From Chlorobiota bacterium (lineage in GTDB: Bacteria; Bacteroidota; Bacteroidia; Bacteroidales; JAADGE01), in contig JAADGE010000036.1 in NCBI GenBank assembly GCA_013152535.1, positions 1 through 46,883 on the forward strand: DNA of 46,883 bases. Reading direction: 5' to 3'. The position numbers were made by a program, and so were the translations under genes. Every line of letters begins with the position of its first letter. Position 1 is the first letter of the stretch. Shown here in pieces: positions 710 to 19,769 of the stretch. A model generated the notes under the pieces. It was not told the origin of the DNA, ran no database searches, and saw only the letters and a list, made by a program, of their open reading frames with translations.

Positions 710-1348
710 TCAAGCTTTATTATACAGAATCCAACCAAAAACGGATGTCAGTGTAATTACATAAATAACAAGTACATAAATCCATTTTCCGCCAAATTTA
801 GGAGTTGGAATTGAGCTTAAGTTTAATGCTGACAGAATCATTAAGATGACATAAATAAATATTGAAAAAGTGGAATGCTTGAAGAAATGTTCAAATAAAA
901 AGACAAAAGCAAGAATAAGTACATTATTATCAAGAGCCAAACCTTTATATGTTTTACTGTCAATAAGACCATAAACATTAAAGTAACTTAAACGGATAGT
1001 ACCGGTAGCAATAATTACAAAAGCTCCGGGTATAAACCATACACTATAATTTCCGTAGCTTAAGAGTATTATTGCAGGTAAAATTCCAAAGCTTACAATA
1101 TCAATCATCGAATCAAGTTGAGCTCCGAAAATACCTTGTATTTTTGTCCTGCCTTTCAATTTTCGGGCAATAATTCCGTCGTACCAATCGAACAGAACTG
1201 CCCAAAGTACTCCGATTATTGCTGCCGGAAAATTTCCTTTTATTGCGAAATATATTCCTAATACAGCACTTAATAATCCGATTAATGAACAAATATTAGG
1301 TAAATCTTTGGCAAAAGTAAGCATGCCGGGCTGTTTTTTGTTAGTCAT
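710..1348 (-). CDS. CDP-alcohol phosphatidyltransferase family membrane enzyme (PssA-like)
   Basis: This 212-residue integral membrane protein belongs to the family that moves a phospho-alcohol between CMP and a lipid hydroxyl. The catalytic motif is present: D54, D57-G58, A61-R62, G75, D79 and D83, followed by IVSFGILPA as in phosphatidylserine synthases. About six hydrophobic segments are visible. One oddity is that AR and the downstream Gly are 12 residues apart, where the usual spacing is 8, so there is a four-residue insertion in the signature. It is the last gene of a three-gene minus-strand operon, 4 bp after the PLP enzyme. Context suggests it uses a CDP-activated amino-alcohol made by its neighbours, with diacylglycerol or a related lipid as acceptor. 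That substrate is inferred. A conventional phosphatidylserine synthase is the main alternative. Confidence 0.85.
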   Translation of the reverse strand: MTNKKQPGMLTFAKDLPNICSLIGLLSAVLGIYFAIKGNFPAAIIGVLWAVLFDWYDGIIARKLKGRTKIQGIFGAQLDSMIDIVSFGILPAIILLSYGNYSVWFIPGAFVIIATGTIRLSYFNVYGLIDSKTYKGLALDNNVLILAFVFLFEHFFKHSTFSIFIYVILMILSALNLSSIPTPKFGGKWIYVLVIYVITLTSVFGWILYNKA

Positions 1349-1352
1349 ATCA

Positions 1353-2483
1353 TTAACTTTTTAAATACATTACATCCTTCAAAGCTACAATAAGTTTACT
1401 GTTTTCCTCATTGGTGCGACTTGCAATTCGAATATATCGGTCGGCATCGGGTTGTGTTTTCTCTGCACTGTCTTTTATATAAATATTGTGTTTAATAAAT
1501 AAACGCTTTGTTATTTCCGGTCCGCTTAAAGCTGTATCGGGTAAGCGACAGAAAATATAGTTTGCATCGGGTTTAAAAACTGTCATCCCTTCAATAGCCG
1601 ACAGCTTTTTATAAAAAATATCACGATCTGATTTAACTCGTTCGCAACTTGCTTCAAATTCTTGTTTGTAACGGGGCAAAATACGCATAAACTCTTCGGC
1701 AAATCCGTTGATGTTCCAAATATGAATGCCGTTTCGAACTGCTGCCGCAAATTTTAGGTTAGCTGTTAACAAATATCCGATTCTAAGTCCGCAAATTCCG
1801 TAAGCTTTACTCATGCTTTTAAGAATAGCCATATTGGGGTATTTATCAATATCTTGTTCCAAACTTATTTGCACCTTGTTTTCAGCAAAATCAAGAAAAG
1901 ATTCATCAATAATCAGCATACAATTATGCTTTTCCAGCTTCTGCGCAAGTCGAATTAAATCGGCTTTCGGCACCAACAACGATGTAGGATTATTTGGTGT
2001 TACAACAACAGCGATGTCGGCTTTAACTTTAATAATCTCGGAGGCAAATTTATCTATATCCAGTTGAAAGGATGGAAATTCAAGCGGAAATTCTACCACA
2101 TGATTTTTAGGTGCTGCATTTGCATATTCGTTAAACGAAGGTACCGGAACAATTATTTTTTTTGCTAAATGGCCGGACAGTATTTTTATAATTTCAGCAG
2201 CACCGTTTCCGACAACAATTCTTTCACCGGGTTGCTGAATTATTTCCCCGATTAATTCGGCAAGTGCATTTTGTGCCATAGGGTAATTCAACACTAAGTT
2301 CTCAATGTTATCTTTAAGGTGGGAGAATACTGCTTTAGGAGGAAAATAGAGATTGTATAAATAGGCATGATCGGTAAAATTATGCCTATAATAGCCGCCG
2401 TGTTGTTTTGATATGTATTCGTATTTCTCCGCCTGTGTTTTATATTTATTCTTCATCGTATATTTATTTGAAACACTATGCAT
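1353..2483 (-). CDS. PLP-dependent fold-type I enzyme, HisC/CobD-like (possible phospho-amino-acid decarboxylase)
   Basis: The 376-residue product has the class I/II aminotransferase core: TPNNPTS (about 162-168), IIDES with the PLP-pyridine Asp at 193, SMSKAYG with the Schiff-base Lys at 226, GLRIGY (232-237) and a carboxylate-binding Arg near 352 (IRIAS). The N-terminus carries HGG at 28-30, a motif also found near the N-terminus of CobD, the threonine-phosphate decarboxylase. That favours a substrate bearing a phosphate or phosphonate group. Its ATG overlaps the upstream cytidylyltransferase stop by 8 bp, implying translational coupling; a second Met at residue 10 is an alternative start. 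In some bacteria the two domains are one fused protein, as far as I recall. Decarboxylation of phosphoserine to phosphoethanolamine, or formation of aminoethylphosphonate, are both possible. The fold is certain and the substrate is not. Confidence 0.85.
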   Translation of the reverse strand: MHSVSNKYTMKNKYKTQAEKYEYISKQHGGYYRHNFTDHAYLYNLYFPPKAVFSHLKDNIENLVLNYPMAQNALAELIGEIIQQPGERIVVGNGAAEIIKILSGHLAKKIIVPVPSFNEYANAAPKNHVVEFPLEFPSFQLDIDKFASEIIKVKADIAVVVTPNNPTSLLVPKADLIRLAQKLEKHNCMLIIDESFLDFAENKVQISLEQDIDKYPNMAILKSMSKAYGICGLRIGYLLTANLKFAAAVRNGIHIWNINGFAEEFMRILPRYKQEFEASCERVKSDRDIFYKKLSAIEGMTVFKPDANYIFCRLPDTALSGPEITKRLFIKHNIYIKDSAEKTQPDADRYIRIASRTNEENSKLIVALKDVMYLKS

Positions 2484-3273
2484 ATGTCTTTTCCGGCTTG
2501 ACCCGTATTTTCATTTCTGCCGGGAAAAGTTTTTCTGCTTCAGCTAAATCATTTACAGTATCAATCTCGTACCACGCTTTATTGTCGTACGAAACGGATT
2601 CAAACGACAATGTTTTATTTTCAACCATTTCAGAAAAAACAGTTTCGTAGTAACAGTTAACACTTCCCACAGCAATATACCGGTTAAGCATCTTAACAAT
2701 TGCTTGCCATGAAGCAAGCGAAAAGCTGTAAATATTAACTGTTTTATAACGAATATCAGTATATGTATCTGTTGTCCCTTTGTGAAACTTAGTTACTTGA
2801 TTTTGTTTATTAAGGGAAACGGTGGTTCCGTTTAACCATGGTTGCATTTCAGCTACGGCCATTTTATCGGGATAAACCATTTCATCGAGCAAGGATGTAT
2901 TTAAAACCAAATCACTTTCGAACAGAACAAAAGGTTCATTTATGATATTGCGAGCCATCCATAACGAATAAATGTTGTTAGTGGTACGGTACAACGGACT
3001 AAAAATATACTCAATGTTTAAATCTCCTGATTTGCTGCCCAGAAAATCCATAATACATTCATTTTTGTAGCCGGTAACAATTACAAGACGTTTAAACCCT
3101 TGTTTTTTTAAATTATTGATAAGTCGCTCAAGAATTGACTTTTCATTTACAAGGGTTAGGCATTTGGGATAATTTTTTGTTAAAGGGAAAAGACGACTGC
3201 CTGTACCTGCCGCAAGAAGTAATGCAGTGGAAATACGATTGTCGCCATAATAATTGTCTGAATTAATATTCAT
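2476..3273 (-). CDS. Sugar-phosphate/choline-phosphate-type cytidylyltransferase (LicC/PntC-like)
   Basis: The 265-residue product is a single NTP_transferase (GT-A-like) domain. The nucleotide-binding motif spans residues 18-39 with AAGTGSRLFPLT and a Lys at 37, followed by YRTTNNIYSLW (about 95-105). A metal-binding Asp lies in FESDLVL (121) and a second in WYEIDTV (about 238). The TNN-IYSLW segment is typical of LicC-type phosphocholine cytidylyltransferases and relatives acting on phosphoethanolamine or 2-aminoethylphosphonate, which couple a phospho-amino-alcohol to CTP. It is the first gene of the operon and overlaps the next start by 8 bp. Together with the following PLP enzyme and CDP-alcohol phosphotransferase it would provide the activated head group. 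A hexose-1-phosphate nucleotidyltransferase is less likely given its partners. Confidence 0.85.
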   Translation of the reverse strand: MNINSDNYYGDNRISTALLLAAGTGSRLFPLTKNYPKCLTLVNEKSILERLINNLKKQGFKRLVIVTGYKNECIMDFLGSKSGDLNIEYIFSPLYRTTNNIYSLWMARNIINEPFVLFESDLVLNTSLLDEMVYPDKMAVAEMQPWLNGTTVSLNKQNQVTKFHKGTTDTYTDIRYKTVNIYSFSLASWQAIVKMLNRYIAVGSVNCYYETVFSEMVENKTLSFESVSYDNKAWYEIDTVNDLAEAEKLFPAEMKIRVKPEKTYA

Positions 3274-3376
3274 ACTTTATTCAATTTGTGTCATCAAAAA
3301 AAACGAAAATGCTCGACTAAAAGCTCTTAGGCGTACTAAATATTAGTACTTTGACGTGTGGACTTATTACTGATAA

Positions 3377-3514
3377 CTCAACTATAAGTATGAAGTTTGC
3401 GAATGCGATGAAAGGTCGCTTAAAAAAGCACATCAACAAATTAATAGTAAATATTTGATGTCAAAAGACAAGGAATCCGTGTACAAAGGTACTCTAATAA
3501 TTAAGACTGACTAA
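3377..3514 (+). pseudogene. Possible internal fragment of the same transposase
   Basis: An open stretch reads LNYKYEVCECDERS, then SLKKAHQQINSKYLMSKDK and ends at TAA 3512-3514. Its style resembles the central region of IS1182-type transposases and it lies just upstream of the convincing C-terminal fragment. If genuine, the catalytic middle of the gene has been deleted between about 3514 and 3554. The resemblance is from memory only. Confidence 0.3.
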
Positions 3515-7129: not shown

Positions 7130-7307
7130 TTTTGAGTTTTAAGTATTATTAATTGTCAATGTCTCAGTAGTTTATGATTTTATTATAAAAAAATAAATTA
7201 TTTTTTATGGAATTTATATAATCGGAACATCTCTATATCAAACAACATAAACAAGCAACTAAACTAAACTTTAAAACTACACAAACCTGAATCAAAAAGC
7301 AAGGAAA

Positions 7308-7336
7308 ACTTTTGAACTGCTCTGTTAACCGGAGCA
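7308..7336 (+). terminator. Plus-strand hairpin with T-run and no evident plus-strand gene
   Basis: The plus strand reads GAACTGCTC, loop TGTTAACCG, GAGCAGTT and a T-run. The T-run is on the plus strand only, but the nearest genes on both sides (radC and the TPR-phosphatase) are on the minus strand. It may end an unannotated plus-strand transcript in 7143-7342, or simply be a structure at the end of the minus-strand gene. Boundaries are approximate to a few bases. Confidence 0.5.
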
Positions 7337-7342
7337 GTTTTT

Positions 7343-9433
7343 TTATAATTTAATTCCCATTATCATAATATCATCAACTTGCTCAAAATTTCCTTTCCAT
7401 TTATTAAATTCAGAGTTCAGGATATTTTTCTGTTCTTTCATAGGTTCGGACGAAATCGAAAGCAATAATTCTTTTAATCGTTTTGAAGAATATTTTTTAT
7501 TATACATTTCACTGAATTGATCCGGAAATCCGTCCGTAAACATCCATATTATATCATCTTTTTTAAGTTTTATATTGTGGCTTTTAAAGGGTTGTTCACG
7601 ATAATAAATACCTACCGGCTGTCTGTCTGCTTTATATTTTACAATTATTTTTTTCCCTTTATCTTCCGTGATAACATACATCGAATTAAATGCACCGGAA
7701 AATTGTGTTTCTTTTGTTTTCAGGTTAATTGAAAACAAAGCAATATCCCAACCGTCCTTATGTTCTCGAAAATTTCCGTTTTGATTTAGTCGTTGTTTAA
7801 TTTTATTTCTCAAATTATTTAAAACCACATCGGTTTGAATAAAATCTTCCGTAACGATTTCATTTAAAAACGACATACCCGTGATGCTTAATAAAGCTCC
7901 GGGAATTCCGTGACCGGTACTGCCTCCTACGGCAATAAAAACAGTATTATTTATTTTTTTTGACCAATAAAAATCTCCGCTTAAGGTGTATGCAGGCTTG
8001 TAAAGAATAATAAATTCGGAAAAAACTTTTAATGTATCGGTAAATGAAGAAAGCATTACATTCTGGATTTTTCCTGCGTAATTAATACTTCCTTTGATAT
8101 CGGAATAAGCATTATTTAATTCTTTATTTTTTTCGGAAAGAGTATTTGTTATTTTTTTATTTTTTAAGTTAAATTTATAAAGTAAACCGGCAAATAAAAT
8201 TATTATTACCAATAATGCGGAAATAATACTGATAATAAAAGATTGTCTTTTATTAATCATTTTTTGATATTCTTGTGCTTTTTTCAAGAAAAGATTTTCT
8301 TTTTCTGCATTCTCAGTTTCATATTTTATTCGTATTAAATTTATTTTATTTTGAACGTTTTCTCCTGTAATTGAATCTTTTATTGTGTCTTTTTTAAGTA
8401 TATATTCATACGCTTTTTTGTAATTCCCGGTTTTTGCATATAATAAATGCAGTAAATTATAAATATTCGGAAGTTCTCGTTTCTCTTTTGTTAAGTTAAT
8501 AGAGTACAGGGCTTTTTTAAGTGCTTTTTCAGCATTTTTATATTGTTTTGTTTCAATATATAACTTGCCGGTAGCTTCATATAAAAATATTAAACCGGAA
8601 TAATATTTATGTTTTTTTTCAATAATAATTGCTTGATTGTAGAGATTTAAAGCTTTTGAATATTTCTTTTCAACTTCATAAGTTTCGGCAATATTGCCGA
8701 TTTCTATCGCTGCAGACAGTTCATCATTTAAGAGTTGATAAAGATTTAATGCTTTAGTATAAAAATATCCGGATGCGGAATAGAATTTTTTGTAAAATTG
8801 TATAACGCCTTTTTTTTCATATATTCCTGCAATTAATACAGTGTCATAATTGTTTTTTTTATTGTTTAAAACATCATCGTAAATTTTCTCAGCTTCTTTT
8901 AAATTTTTTAAATCCAGATAAACAGATGCTGTATTTAATTTTGTAACAGTAATATTATCGGAATCATTCAATTCCTCAAAAATATTAATTGCTTCGTTTC
9001 CTGATTTTACAGCTTTGTCATAAAGTCCTTGTATCCAAAACAGTTGTAAAAAACCGTTTAATGCAATTCCTTGATAATGTTTATTTTTATTTTTTTTTGC
9101 TTTGTTAAAAAGTTCTGTGTATAGTTTGTAACTTATATTAAACTTTGAAAGTTTAAATTTATTTCTTGCTAAAAGTTCTAAAAATGCCATTTCTGAATCT
9201 GAATGTTTTGTTCTTGAAAGTTTCAGACCTTTTTCTGCATAATAAACAGATTTGTCATAGTAATTTTCCGAAAAGTACAGCTCTGTTAATTTTTTAAGAA
9301 CGGAAATTTTGTTTTCAATATTATTAGTTTGGTTAAGGCTTTTTTCAAGAGAGTCAATATTTTTATTTTGTGCAAAAATAAACATTGTGCTTGCACAAAA
9401 CAGAAAAATTAATATTGACGTTTTTTTAATCAT
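7343..9433 (-). CDS. TPR-repeat membrane protein with C-terminal SpoIIE/PP2C-type phosphatase domain
   Basis: The 696-residue product begins with a signal peptide (MIKKTSILIFLFCASTMFIFA). About eight TPR-like helix pairs follow (e.g. GNIAETYEVEKKYSKALNLY), then a transmembrane helix near 400-420, a short coiled coil, and a SpoIIE domain from about 474. This layout (periplasmic TPR sensor, cytoplasmic Ser/Thr phosphatase) is common in Bacteroidota and usually acts in partner-switching or stress signalling. Metal-site residues Asp487 (SGDFYW), Asp634 (FTDG) and Asp687/688 (QVDD) are present. However, the segment normally reading ADCTGHG is GGSTGHG, so the usual metal-binding Asp is Gly504. Activity may be altered or lost. 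It follows the hydrolase gene by 50 bp and may be co-transcribed with it. Confidence 0.88.
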   Translation of the reverse strand: MIKKTSILIFLFCASTMFIFAQNKNIDSLEKSLNQTNNIENKISVLKKLTELYFSENYYDKSVYYAEKGLKLSRTKHSDSEMAFLELLARNKFKLSKFNISYKLYTELFNKAKKNKNKHYQGIALNGFLQLFWIQGLYDKAVKSGNEAINIFEELNDSDNITVTKLNTASVYLDLKNLKEAEKIYDDVLNNKKNNYDTVLIAGIYEKKGVIQFYKKFYSASGYFYTKALNLYQLLNDELSAAIEIGNIAETYEVEKKYSKALNLYNQAIIIEKKHKYYSGLIFLYEATGKLYIETKQYKNAEKALKKALYSINLTKEKRELPNIYNLLHLLYAKTGNYKKAYEYILKKDTIKDSITGENVQNKINLIRIKYETENAEKENLFLKKAQEYQKMINKRQSFIISIISALLVIIILFAGLLYKFNLKNKKITNTLSEKNKELNNAYSDIKGSINYAGKIQNVMLSSFTDTLKVFSEFIILYKPAYTLSGDFYWSKKINNTVFIAVGGSTGHGIPGALLSITGMSFLNEIVTEDFIQTDVVLNNLRNKIKQRLNQNGNFREHKDGWDIALFSINLKTKETQFSGAFNSMYVITEDKGKKIIVKYKADRQPVGIYYREQPFKSHNIKLKKDDIIWMFTDGFPDQFSEMYNKKYSSKRLKELLLSISSEPMKEQKNILNSEFNKWKGNFEQVDDIMIMGIKL

Positions 9434-10306: not shown

Positions 10307-11476
10307 TTACTTGAGGTTTTTAAAACTGTTTTCAATTTCTTTTGATATTGTTTCCAGAACTTTGTTAAAAGGCGGAGTGCCGTCGATAATGGTAATATCG
10401 TGGGTCTCTTTGTATTTTTCAATTACGGGAATAGTTTTGTCTTCGTGTTCCTGCAAGCGTTTAACAATTTTTTCCGTACTGCTGTCGTAGGGCATTACCG
10501 CATCGGTTTTGCTGCGTTTGTCAAGCCGACGTATAAGTTCCAAAGTATCTACTTTTATTTCAAAAATTTTAGCAATGTAAGAATCGTATTTTTTTAAAAG
10601 TCCGTCGAGAATGTAGGATTGTACCAGTGTTCGCGGAAATCCCTTAAAAATAAATCCTCTGATATTTTTTGAATTTATTATTTTTTTCTCAATAAGAGGA
10701 ATAACAATTTCATCAGGAACTAATTGTCCGCTTTCGTACAAATTCTTAATTTTTTTACCTGTTTCGCTGCCTTTTTCAATTTCTTCTTCCAACATTTCTC
10801 CGGTTGCCACAAATTCCAGCTTATATTTTTCTGCCAAAGCTTTTCCCAACGACCCTCTGCCCGAACCCGGATGCCCGAACATTACAATATTCAGTAATTT
10901 TTTGCTTAATAAATCGTTGATTACCTTATCTATGTCTTCGGTAACTTTCGGAATTGTTTGCATTCCGTTTACGGCAATATAATTCCCTTTTTCTTTATAG
11001 AAATTTAAAACAGGCAAAGTTTTATCGTGATATTCTTTTAGTCGGTTGCGAATTACGGTTTTGTTATCATCGCTTCTGCCGGAAGTTTTTGCTCTGTTCA
11101 AAAGCCGTTTTACGCTTTCTTCTTCCGAAACTTCGATACTTATTAAGGCATCTAAATTTGAATTAAGTTTAATCATAAGTCCTTCAAGGATATACGCTTG
11201 TATGTATGTTCGCGGAAAACCGTCGAATAAAAATCCGTTGGCATCGGAATTTGTTTTTATTGTTTTTTCAATAATTTGAACAATAATTTCGTCAGATACC
11301 AAACCGCCTTGTGCGATAATATCTTTTGCCTGCATACCGAGTTTGGTTTCGGCAGCTAATTCTTTTCTCAGCAAATCACCTGTTGAAATATAGAAAAGAT
11401 TGTATTTATGAATTAAAAATTCCGATTGTGTTCCTTTTCCTGCTCCGGGCGGACCGAATAATGCAATATTTAACAT
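10307..11476 (-). CDS. adk: Tandem adenylate kinase with degenerate second domain
   Basis: From the ATG at 11476 (MLNIALFGPPGAGKG) the protein has 389 residues, about twice a normal adenylate kinase; an upstream in-frame Met would only add an unlikely 14-residue tail. The first half is canonical: P-loop GPPGAGKGTQ (Lys14), STGDLL, GFLFDGFPRT (Asp85) and GRSDD. It should make ADP from ATP and AMP. The second half repeats the fold but diverges at key sites: P-loop GHPGSGRGSLG (Lys to Arg, residue 207), VATGEML, and GFIFKGFPRT (Asp to Lys, residue 278). It may therefore bind nucleotide weakly or act structurally. The lid is short, without zinc cysteines. It is the first gene of a likely adk-hydrolase-phosphatase operon, divergent from the S46 peptidase. 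Confidence 0.9.
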   Translation of the reverse strand: MLNIALFGPPGAGKGTQSEFLIHKYNLFYISTGDLLRKELAAETKLGMQAKDIIAQGGLVSDEIIVQIIEKTIKTNSDANGFLFDGFPRTYIQAYILEGLMIKLNSNLDALISIEVSEEESVKRLLNRAKTSGRSDDNKTVIRNRLKEYHDKTLPVLNFYKEKGNYIAVNGMQTIPKVTEDIDKVINDLLSKKLLNIVMFGHPGSGRGSLGKALAEKYKLEFVATGEMLEEEIEKGSETGKKIKNLYESGQLVPDEIVIPLIEKKIINSKNIRGFIFKGFPRTLVQSYILDGLLKKYDSYIAKIFEIKVDTLELIRRLDKRSKTDAVMPYDSSTEKIVKRLQEHEDKTIPVIEKYKETHDITIIDGTPPFNKVLETISKEIENSFKNLK

Positions 11477-11556
11477 AATGAATATTTTTTCAGGTTTAAA
11501 ATTAATATAAAAATCCAAATTGAAAAATTTTCAACTTTTGAGTTAAAATAATTCTA

Positions 11557-19534: not shown

Positions 19535-19552
19535 TCCCGAAAGCTTCGGATA
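19535..19552 (-). promoter_or_regulatory. Hairpin downstream of the riboswitch aptamer
   Basis: On the minus strand ATCCGAAG / CTTTCGGGAT forms a short stem just 3' of the aptamer. No T-run follows, so it may be part of the expression platform rather than a terminator. Confidence 0.4.
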
Positions 19553-19559
19553 ATAATAT

Positions 19560-19733
19560 GAATCCGGCAGGTCTTCTGACTTACTCCTTATTTTAAACGC
19601 CTTCCCGTTTGCAAATTAAAAACAGTGGCAAAAGAATGTTTAAAACATTGAAGATTACAGCAGCGGGTACTGTTGCCGATTTTCACGGCATTCCCTTTTA
19701 TATTTGAATATAATAAACAAATATACCTGATTC
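19560..19733 (-). promoter_or_regulatory. Cobalamin (B12) riboswitch
   Basis: Read on the minus strand the element has the conserved cobalamin aptamer parts in order: GGGAATGCCGTGAAAATCGG, CAACAGTACCCGCTGCTGT, the B12-box sequence GCCACTG, CGGGAAGGCG, and AGTCAGAAGACCTGCC, closed by a short GAATC/GGATTC pairing. Binding of adenosyl- or another cobalamin normally shuts off expression. It lies 139 nt upstream of the DUF4465 gene, inside its leader. Confidence 0.95.
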
Positions 19734-19738
19734 TGTTG

Positions 19739-19769
19739 CAAAGTTAAATGAATAAATCCGGATTACAAA
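19739..19769 (-). promoter_or_regulatory. Consensus promoter for the riboswitch-DUF4465 transcript
   Basis: On the minus strand TTTG (19769-19766), a 19-nt spacer and TAACTTTG (19746-19739) fit the Bacteroidota -33/-7 consensus exactly. Transcription would start a few bases later, just ahead of the riboswitch. Confidence 0.8.

What the first reader, a model, noticed from the sequence alone, without database searches (positions are those of the whole stretch)
710..3273. Self-contained CDP-head-group cassette: cytidylyltransferase, CobD-like PLP enzyme and CDP-alcohol phosphotransferase
Three tightly packed genes (8-bp overlap, then a 4-bp gap) encode a LicC/PntC-like cytidylyltransferase, a PLP enzyme with an HGG N-terminal motif as in CobD, and a PssA-like CDP-alcohol phosphotransferase. 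Seen together they suggest a linear route: phospho-amino acid to phospho-amino-alcohol (decarboxylation), to CDP-amino-alcohol, to lipid. If the substrate is phosphoserine this would be a bacterial Kennedy-type route to phosphatidylethanolamine that needs no Psd decarboxylase; if it is a phosphonate, a phosphonolipid route. No PEP mutase is encoded here, which mildly favours the phosphoserine version. The enzyme families are established; the pathway is inference.
Basis: partly seen in the sequence, partly recalled or inferred. Interest (0 to 1): 0.78.

Follow-up and report, generated by a model that had tools for sequence, protein, structure and literature searches.

The report
Travelling gene trio for lipid heads
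Three neighbouring genes, found as one travelling unit in very distantly related sea-sediment bacteria and archaea, very probably turn a serine-like building block into an activated amine head group and put it on a lipid, a way of making phospholipids usually associated with plants and animals.

Summary
The set is a real unit: 71 of the 80 best GTDB loci hold all three in one order, at 51-90% protein identity, in about ten bacterial phyla and in methanogenic archaea. Between same-genus genomes only the cassette and its leader are shared. Best reading: O-phosphoserine is decarboxylated to phosphoethanolamine, activated as CDP-ethanolamine and transferred to a lipid. Support: the nearest solved PLP relative; two invariant CT pocket glutamates as in the AEP enzyme PntC, where choline-specific LicC has aspartates; optional fourth genes, one family nearest to phosphoethanolamine N-methyltransferase; PEP mutase in only 2 of 53 cassette genomes tested. 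Against a lipid product: one cassette-bearing isolate reports no ethanolamine lipid among its major lipids. Not foreseen: 23 Bacteroidota cassettes share a covarying three-way-junction RNA leader unknown to Rfam. Chemistry and acceptor remain inferred.

The parts
2476..3273 (-). Gene 1, CT: LicC/PntC-like cytidylyltransferase, 265 aa; E119 and E210 are the two amine-pocket positions
   Evidence: AF2 model mean pLDDT 87.1, top folds LicC and PntC
1353..2483 (-). Gene 2, PLP enzyme of the CobD branch, 376 aa; proposed phospho-amino-acid (phosphoserine) decarboxylase
710..1348 (-). Gene 3, CAP: membrane CDP-alcohol phosphotransferase, 212 aa; catalytic motif kept, PssA loop GLPxPxA replaced by a GxxxDxN loop (here GLALDNN)
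   Evidence: AF2 model mean pLDDT 90.2, nearest fold MjPSS, TM 0.70
3483..3514 (-). Promoter-like elements TTAG (3514-3511) and TACCTTTGT (3491-3483), Bacteroidetes -33/-7 type (consensus recalled)
   Evidence: sequence; conserved in the alignment; position scan
3274..3482 (-). Conserved 5' leader (about 205 nt) shared by 23 Bacteroidota cassettes
3280..3358 (-). Three-way-junction RNA element in the leader (helices of 7, 7 and 6 pairs), model R1
   Evidence: no Rfam match

Best explanation
A self-contained, horizontally spread head-group cassette. Gene 2 decarboxylates O-phospho-L-serine (made by SerC) to phosphoethanolamine; gene 1 joins it to CTP, giving CDP-ethanolamine; gene 3, a membrane enzyme of the PssA fold with an altered loop near the donor site, moves phosphoethanolamine to a lipid alcohol (diacylglycerol or another in bacteria, archaeol in archaea) and releases CMP. 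In some lineages a fourth gene then modifies the amine: a methyltransferase of the phosphoethanolamine N-methyltransferase type, an ATP-grasp ligase or, in relatives, an opine-dehydrogenase-like enzyme. In Bacteroidota a structured RNA leader usually travels with the genes and probably controls them. SHOWN here: the genes, their unity, spread, pocket residues, leader structure. INFERRED: each chemical step, the lipid acceptor, what the leader and the fourth genes do.
For: Unity: CT+PLP+CAP in one order in 71 of 80 loci; 5 of the 9 others are cut by contig ends. Window against two same-genus genomes: only cassette plus leader is alike. PLP: best solved relative 6oux, 'threonine phosphate decarboxylase-like' (I recall it as SMUL_1544, a phosphoserine decarboxylase); CobD model over HisC model. 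CT: E119/E210 invariant in 38 of 38; they align with Tde-PntC Glu104/Glu196, which face the primary amine, where choline-specific LicC has Asp105/Asp192. Fourth-gene methyltransferase: best solved relative phosphoethanolamine N-methyltransferase 1, 2.6e-23. PEP mutase over cut-off in 2 of 53. SerC in the own genome. No HisC, HisD or CobS found there, so no histidine or cobamide pathway claims the PLP enzyme. CAP is not the only PssA-like protein: another is present, and the PssA loop is lost.
Against: No assay exists. Phosphonoalanine/AEP and phosphothreonine/aminopropanol phosphate are not excluded by sequence; in Mesorhizobium a 41%-identical PLP enzyme and a CT lie beside PEP mutase. The second-best solved relative of the PLP profile is 3ftb, labelled histidinol-phosphate aminotransferase (154.5 against 181.4 bits). 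Psd is present in 45 of 53 cassette genomes, so plain PE would be redundant there. Pontiella sulfatireligans, which carries the cassette (L087), reports PG, MGDG and cardiolipins, no ethanolamine lipid, as major lipids (PMC7356697, passages). Residues that bind serine in MjPSS (Asp62, Ser63, Asp66, Phe105, with Arg101) have counterparts in CAP, so PssA-like use of CDP-DAG is not excluded by those positions. Lys replaces CobD Arg323 (my count along the alignment).
Confidence: 0.58

Rival explanations
1. Phosphonolipid route: gene 2 decarboxylates phosphonoalanine to 2-aminoethylphosphonate, gene 1 is a true PntC, and gene 3 makes a phosphonolipid.
For: CT pocket matches PntC at both amine positions. 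On a Mesorhizobium plasmid aepX, an aminotransferase, a CT and a 41%-identical PLP gene are consecutive.
Against: PEP mutase over cut-off in only 2 of 53 cassette genomes, there on other contigs than the cassette, and no match in the window's genome.
Confidence: 0.12
2. The amino alcohol is 1-amino-2-propanol phosphate, from phosphothreonine as in true CobD.
For: CobD is the best NCBIfam model.
Against: The best solved relative is the CobD-like 6oux, well ahead of CobD itself (181 against 118 bits); the own genome lacks CobS; the fourth-gene methyltransferase points to phosphoethanolamine.
Confidence: 0.1
3. The acceptor of gene 3 is not a membrane lipid: the cassette makes a soluble phosphodiester (an osmolyte such as a glycerophosphoethanolamine-like compound) or decorates a surface glycan.
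For: Present in bacteria and archaea, which differ in their lipid alcohols; a CDP-alcohol enzyme with a soluble acceptor (4mnd, IPCT-DIPPS) is in the fold lists; a LicD gene follows the cassette in L101 and the fused CT-PLP gene in L005; Pontiella major lipids show no ethanolamine lipid.
Against: CAP is on the PssA/archaetidylserine branch, whose known members act on lipids; LicD was noticed beside only one of the 80 cassettes (neighbours were not all annotated).
Confidence: 0.15
4. An ordinary PssA plus two unrelated enzymes: CAP makes phosphatidylserine and the neighbours serve surface polysaccharide.
For: Serine-site residues of MjPSS are kept in CAP; the fold is nearest to MjPSS.
Against: One order in 71 of 80 loci across phyla; a separate PssA-like protein in the own genome; PssA loop lost; below the PssA cut-off.
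Confidence: 0.05

Closest known systems
Eukaryotic Kennedy (CDP-ethanolamine) pathway, and the plant/Plasmodium serine-decarboxylase/phosphoethanolamine-methyltransferase variant (recalled)
   Same: CDP-activated head group given to a lipid alcohol; in 11 loci a neighbouring gene whose family is nearest to plant phosphoethanolamine N-methyltransferase
   Different: Phosphoethanolamine would come from decarboxylation of phosphoserine in one step, not from ethanolamine kinase; the cytidylyltransferase is LicC/PntC-type; the transferase is of the PssA branch
CDP-inositol-donor inositol phospholipid route (Jorge et al. 2015, title seen only in the reference list of PMC9246714; alternative NTP-transferase/CDP-alcohol cluster proposed in PMC9246714, passages)
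   Same: NTP transferase plus CDP-alcohol phosphotransferase with the activated head group as donor
   Different: Inositol phosphate synthase instead of a PLP enzyme; no amine
PntC / LicC activation of 2-aminoethylphosphonate and phosphocholine (PMC6697681, passages and section 8)
   Same: CT fold, and the amine-pocket glutamates of Tde-PntC
   Different: PEP mutase over cut-off in only 2 of 53 cassette genomes; the fusion partner of Tde-PntC is a class V aminotransferase
SMUL_1544 (norcobamide phosphoserine decarboxylase; recalled, paper not held) and CobD
   Same: Nearest solved sequence of gene 2 is 6oux, which I recall as SMUL_1544
   Different: Here beside a cytidylyltransferase and a CDP-alcohol transferase; own genome lacks CobS
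PssA / archaetidylserine synthase
   Same: Fold and catalytic motif of gene 3
   Different: Loop GLPxPxA replaced by GxxxDxN

Membership tests
CobD, L-threonine-O-3-phosphate decarboxylase (TIGR01140) | Whole-protein score over the curated cut-off | tested here: not met
   187 of 290.55 bits
CobD, L-threonine-O-3-phosphate decarboxylase (TIGR01140) | Genome assembles cobamides (CobS) | tested here: not met
   No CobS in G000, G001, G003; 32 of 53 cassette genomes have it
Phosphoserine decarboxylase of the SMUL_1544 kind | Closest solved relative and decarboxylase activity on phosphoserine | tested here: inconclusive
   6oux is the best match (2.2e-52 with the profile); identity of 6oux with SMUL_1544 recalled; activity not testable
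HisC (TIGR01141) | Score over cut-off and a histidine pathway to serve | tested here: not met
   146 of 276.55 bits; no HisC (E <= 1e-50) and no HisD in the own genome
PntC/LicC cytidylyltransferase | Fold and sequence nearest to PntC/LicC | tested here: met
LicC (phosphocholine-specific) | Asp at both amine-side pocket positions (Asp105, Asp192) | tested here: not met
   Glu in 38 of 38 at both, as in Tde-PntC Glu104/Glu196
PntC (phosphonate tailoring) | Genome makes phosphonates (PEP mutase) | tested here: not met
   2 of 53 genomes over cut-off, own genome none
PssA (TIGR00473) | Score over cut-off and a GLPxPxA-type loop | tested here: not met
   73 of 107 bits; loop GxxxDxN in 39 of 39, against G[LMV]PxP in 10 of 13 PssA-like proteins of cassette genomes
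CDP-alcohol phosphotransferase superfamily | DxxDGxxAR...GxxxDxxxD and PF01066 | tested here: met
   All eight motif residues invariant in 39 of 39 rows; PF01066 50.7 bits, cut-off 22. The window has 12 residues between AR and G where MjPSS has 8
Kennedy-type pathway | CDP-ethanolamine donor, lipid alcohol acceptor | not testable with these tools
   Needs enzyme assay and lipidomics

The most novel reading that the evidence does not exclude
A plug-in Kennedy pathway that moves between bacteria and archaea as one cassette, runs from universal metabolites (phosphoserine, CTP, a lipid alcohol), carries interchangeable amine-modifying fourth genes (methyl, aminoacyl, carboxyalkyl), makes not-yet-described zwitterionic lipids in both domains, and in Bacteroidota is controlled by a new class of structured RNA leader.
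Probability: 0.33. Interest if true: 0.88.

Novelty: new variant of a known kind. Interest (0 to 1): 0.75.

Why it matters
Bacteria are taught to make phosphatidylethanolamine through PssA and Psd; a one-step entry from phosphoserine into CDP-ethanolamine would be a different, portable logic. Its presence at 60-90% PLP identity in many bacterial phyla and in methanogens would make head-group chemistry a transferable trait across the lipid divide. The swapped fourth genes predict specific new lipids that can be looked for by mass, and the leader RNA is a concrete candidate for a lipid-precursor sensor.

Tried and rejected
Rejected for the window: HisC gap-filling; cobamide CobD; CAP as the missing PssA; a sugar-nucleotide role. 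Psd replacement as the general rationale is rejected for most cassette genomes tested. Phage carriage: the viral-contig scan confirmed no relative, and five phage records show 28-29% matches only. Plasmids: 17 records at E <= 1e-40, all under 60% identity. Colwellia CDP-alcohol gene (PMC7542103, passages): gave no link to this set. Searches for a published description found none in the held library: (listings only, unless a paper is cited). The leader model found nothing in the 60 loci outside its training set, among them four Bacteroidota loci with sequence upstream of CT (L041, L051, L052, L077). The leader is not in Rfam. A literature search on polar lipids led to one useful negative.
Full report
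WHAT IS THERE. The three ORFs sit exactly as described: CT 2476-3273, PLP enzyme 1353-2483, CAP 710-1348, all on the minus strand, read CT-PLP-CAP, with 8 bp overlap and 4 bp gap. Pfam gives nucleotidyltransferase, aminotransferase class I/II and CDP-alcohol phosphotransferase. None passes a specific NCBIfam cut-off: PLP 187 bits with CobD and 146 with HisC; CAP 95 bits with archaetidylserine synthase and 73 with PssA. The first 400 bases of the window (minus strand) are the start of a transposase-type gene (PF13808, DDE_Tnp_1-associated).

IT IS A UNIT. In the window's genus, 3 of the 14 genomes searched carry it (G000, G001, G003), in the same order; some of the others are incomplete. A DNA comparison of the window with about 18 kb around the cassette in each of the two others finds similarity only from window base 700/715 to 3517/3524, at 81% and 88%: the three genes plus about 245 bp upstream (blastn, E <= 1e-5). 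In 395 genomes drawn evenly from the window's phylum, its own included, only its own has a cassette-grade PLP gene (E <= 1e-60). By tblastn, CT is in 77, CAP in 74 and all three, in the same order and strand, in 71 of 80. Among these 71, the CAP of L063 and the CT of L106 are cut by contig ends, the CT of L090 matches in two pieces in different frames, and the CT of L097 has an in-frame stop. Of the nine others, five are cut by contig ends (L037, L057, L066, L093, L094); L109 has 530 bp upstream without a CT match; L071, L074 and L099 have 1.8, 0.8 and 8 kb downstream without a CAP match. One Methanosarcina contig has two copies in tandem (L064). Record titles span Bacteroidota, Desulfobacterota, Gammaproteobacteria, Spirochaetota, Kiritimatiellota, Chloroflexota, Gemmatimonadota, Nitrospirota, Acidobacteriota and Methanosarcinales, among others. 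In a PLP tree of 41 rows the three archaeal rows form one clade (100/98) inside the bacterial ones, and ten taxonomic groups need 17 changes against a minimum of 9 (shuffled mean 25.8). Most records are metagenome bins, so single phylum labels may be wrong and paralogues could add changes; five records name strains (Labilibaculum sp. K2S, Carboxylicivirga marina, Saccharicrinis aurantiacus, Flavivirga rizhaonensis, Pontiella sulfatireligans). Rare but very widely scattered: horizontal transfer is the natural reading. The vehicle was not found.

VARIABLE FOURTH GENES. Apart from the three cassette genes, few families recur near the cassettes. Two recur just downstream of CAP: an ATP-grasp protein in 17 loci (in L065 only a 113-aa piece) and a methyltransferase in 11 (9 on the same strand; L054 and L109 on the other). 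The methyltransferase profile (A7, 10 of the 11) matches plant phosphoethanolamine N-methyltransferase 1 best among all PDB chains (2.6e-23); the next is the plant phosphomethylethanolamine enzyme, and further phosphoethanolamine methyltransferases are in the list along with other methyltransferases. The ATP-grasp profile (A6, 10 of the 17) weakly matches three ATP-grasp entries, two of them named peptide or amino-acid ligases (7r8p 6e-7; 8ynd; 8yi6). On the PLP tree the three states (ATP-grasp 8 rows, methyltransferase 8, neither 23) need 14 changes; 'neither' includes loci near contig ends. More distant relatives tell a similar story: CT and PLP fused in one protein of 601-604 aa (L004, L005), beside an octopine-dehydrogenase family gene in L004 and an ornithine cyclodeaminase/mu-crystallin family gene plus LicD in L005; a Rhizobium plasmid with CT, CAP, a 41.6%-identical PLP gene, an octopine dehydrogenase family gene and a methyltransferase. 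That methyl, ligase and opine-type partners all act on the amine is inference, but it converges.

THE CHEMISTRY, STEP BY STEP. PLP: best solved relative 6oux, named 'Threonine phosphate decarboxylase-like enzyme' (154.9 bits alone, 181.4 with the 39-row profile), then 3ftb, labelled histidinol-phosphate aminotransferase (154.5 with the profile), then true CobD (118.2). I recall 6oux as SMUL_1544, the phosphoserine decarboxylase of norcobamide synthesis; that work is not held, and I saw only the title of a SMUL_1544 paper in reference lists. One substitution, Lys for CobD Arg323 (my count along the alignment), is invariant in the 39 rows. CT: alignment to Tde-PntC puts window E119 on Glu104 and E210 on Glu196. 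PMC6697681 section 8 says these two glutamates are positioned to meet the primary amine of AEP, and that LicC has the smaller Asp105 and Asp192 there; it also says Ari-PntC shares the aromatic residues of LicC, so other pocket features vary. Both positions are Glu in 38 of 38 cassette CTs and in the two fused ones. So a small primary amine fits better than choline, also in the cassettes with the methyltransferase, which then should act after activation or on the lipid. CAP: nearest fold is MjPSS (TM 0.70, 22% identity). PMC8633023 section 8 lists Asp62, Ser63, Asp66 and Phe105 around serine and a conserved Arg101; CAP keeps counterparts of all of them (Ser63's is Pro in one row), which is against my reading or at least neutral. 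But of 13 PssA-like proteins that I read from cassette genomes (a 14th was missed by my motif filter), 10 keep a G[LMV]PxP loop and 3 have variants, where 39 of 39 cassette CAPs read GxxxDxN. In my CAP model this loop lies at the start of a short helix; [quoted passage not shown] That the two are the same place is my inference. The paper's introduction also says that the hydrophobic chain of the donor (archaeal or bacterial) has no obvious effect on this enzyme class (passage), which makes service in both domains plausible.

GENOME CONTEXT TESTS. Psd (PF02666): 45 of 53, own included; missing in G062, G081, G088, G093, G094, G095, G098, G103, whose completeness the tool does not tell. PEP mutase over cut-off: 2 of 53 (G066, G081), two more below it. 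HisC over cut-off in 43 of 53, none in the own three at E <= 1e-50; HisD in 43 of 53, none in the own three. CobS in 32 of 53, none in the own three. SerC over cut-off in 29 of 53, own included (447.7 bits); 39 of 53 score above 420 bits; the archaeal genomes match this model weakly or not at all. A separate PssA-like protein, 101.8 bits (cut-off 107), is on contig 42 of the own genome. So for the window: phosphoserine is at hand, PEP mutase is not, histidine and cobamide explanations fail, and the usual PE route is already present. The cassette therefore adds a product or a second route; in the few genomes where Psd was not found it could be the main one.

AGAINST A SIMPLE PE STORY. Pontiella sulfatireligans F21 carries the cassette (L087), and its published major lipids are PG, MGDG, cardiolipins and lyso-cardiolipins (PMC7356697, passages). 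Either the operon was silent, the product minor, or the acceptor is not a membrane lipid. Also, on a Mesorhizobium plasmid, PEP mutase, an aminotransferase, a CT and a 41.4%-identical PLP gene are consecutive: there the PLP enzyme more likely handles phosphonoalanine, so a phosphonate use of this family seems to exist.

THE LEADER. Upstream of CT, 23 Bacteroidota cassettes (window, G001, G003 and 20 GTDB loci) share about 240 bp: promoter-like elements, then a leader of nearly constant length (the -7-like motif lies 211-223 nt before the CT start in 17 of 22 of them scanned). Its 3' half folds into a three-way junction; 97.4% of 460 cells are standard pairs, 5 pairs and 13 cells show changes on both sides, and 0 of 500 shuffles reach these or the covariation score (17 of 500 reach the count of pair types); slid controls reach 36-47% paired. 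The structure was derived from the same rows and the rows are related, so this is good support, not proof; helix 3 is the weakest (92.8%). A covariance model (R1) searched in 30 genomes hits 19, all with cassettes; beyond the cassettes it was built from it finds a second, contig-end copy in G062 and a decayed one in G068, where a broken CT start stands before an octopine-dehydrogenase family gene, and one weak match in G003 (26.5 bits, E 0.047), not pursued beyond its neighbours. It finds nothing in the 60 loci outside the training set, four of which are Bacteroidota loci with sequence upstream of CT (L041, L051, L052, L077), so the leader is common but not universal in that phylum. Rfam has nothing. 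Function unknown; control of the operon in response to a head-group precursor is the obvious guess.

LITERATURE AND NOVELTY. I found no description of this trio in the held open library; most subscription papers are not in it. The nearest logic is the CDP-inositol-donor route to inositol lipids and its proposed Bacteroides variant, an NTP transferase plus a CDP-alcohol transferase (PMC9246714, passages). Hence 'new variant of a known kind'. PMC11129491 (passages) describes lipids of Black Sea Labilibaculum and Lutibacter strains but does not settle the product.

VERDICT.

Noticed in passing
window 3280-3358, minus strand; 23 Bacteroidota loci: Conserved three-way-junction RNA leader not in Rfam; travels with the cassette.
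   Followed up: partly
L145:4273-5864, minus strand (Labilibaculum bin, G068): Decayed second cassette: leader and broken cytidylyltransferase start before an octopine/nopaline dehydrogenase family gene.
   Followed up: partly
L147 and L150 (Rhizobium and Mesorhizobium plasmids): Larger relatives of the cassette on symbiont plasmids, one with PEP mutase, one with octopine dehydrogenase, methyltransferase, CDP-alcohol transferase and metallophosphoesterase genes.
   Followed up: partly
L063:7026-7898: Methanococcoides cytidylyltransferase has an in-frame TAG near its C-terminus (codon 250 of the frame); possible pyrrolysine codon or simply its end.
   Followed up: no
L038, L044, L075, L082, L088, L108: A calcineurin-like phosphoesterase gene (family tested in L044) lies within about 5 kb of the PLP gene in six loci, and a metallophosphoesterase also sits in the Rhizobium relative.
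   Followed up: no
window 10307-11518, minus strand: 403-aa protein with two adenylate kinase matches, apparently a tandem adenylate kinase.
   Followed up: no
window 19549-19745, minus strand: Cobalamin riboswitch (105 bits), while no CobS was found in the genome: uptake rather than synthesis is likely.
   Followed up: no
L097:6871-7731 and L090 about 7133-7883: Cytidylyltransferase of the L097 cassette carries an in-frame TAA, that of L090 matches in two frames, while their PLP and CAP genes are open.
   Followed up: no
G062 (L034 and L144) and L064: Two cassette copies in one genome, once on separate contigs (the second cut by a contig end) and once in tandem.
   Followed up: no
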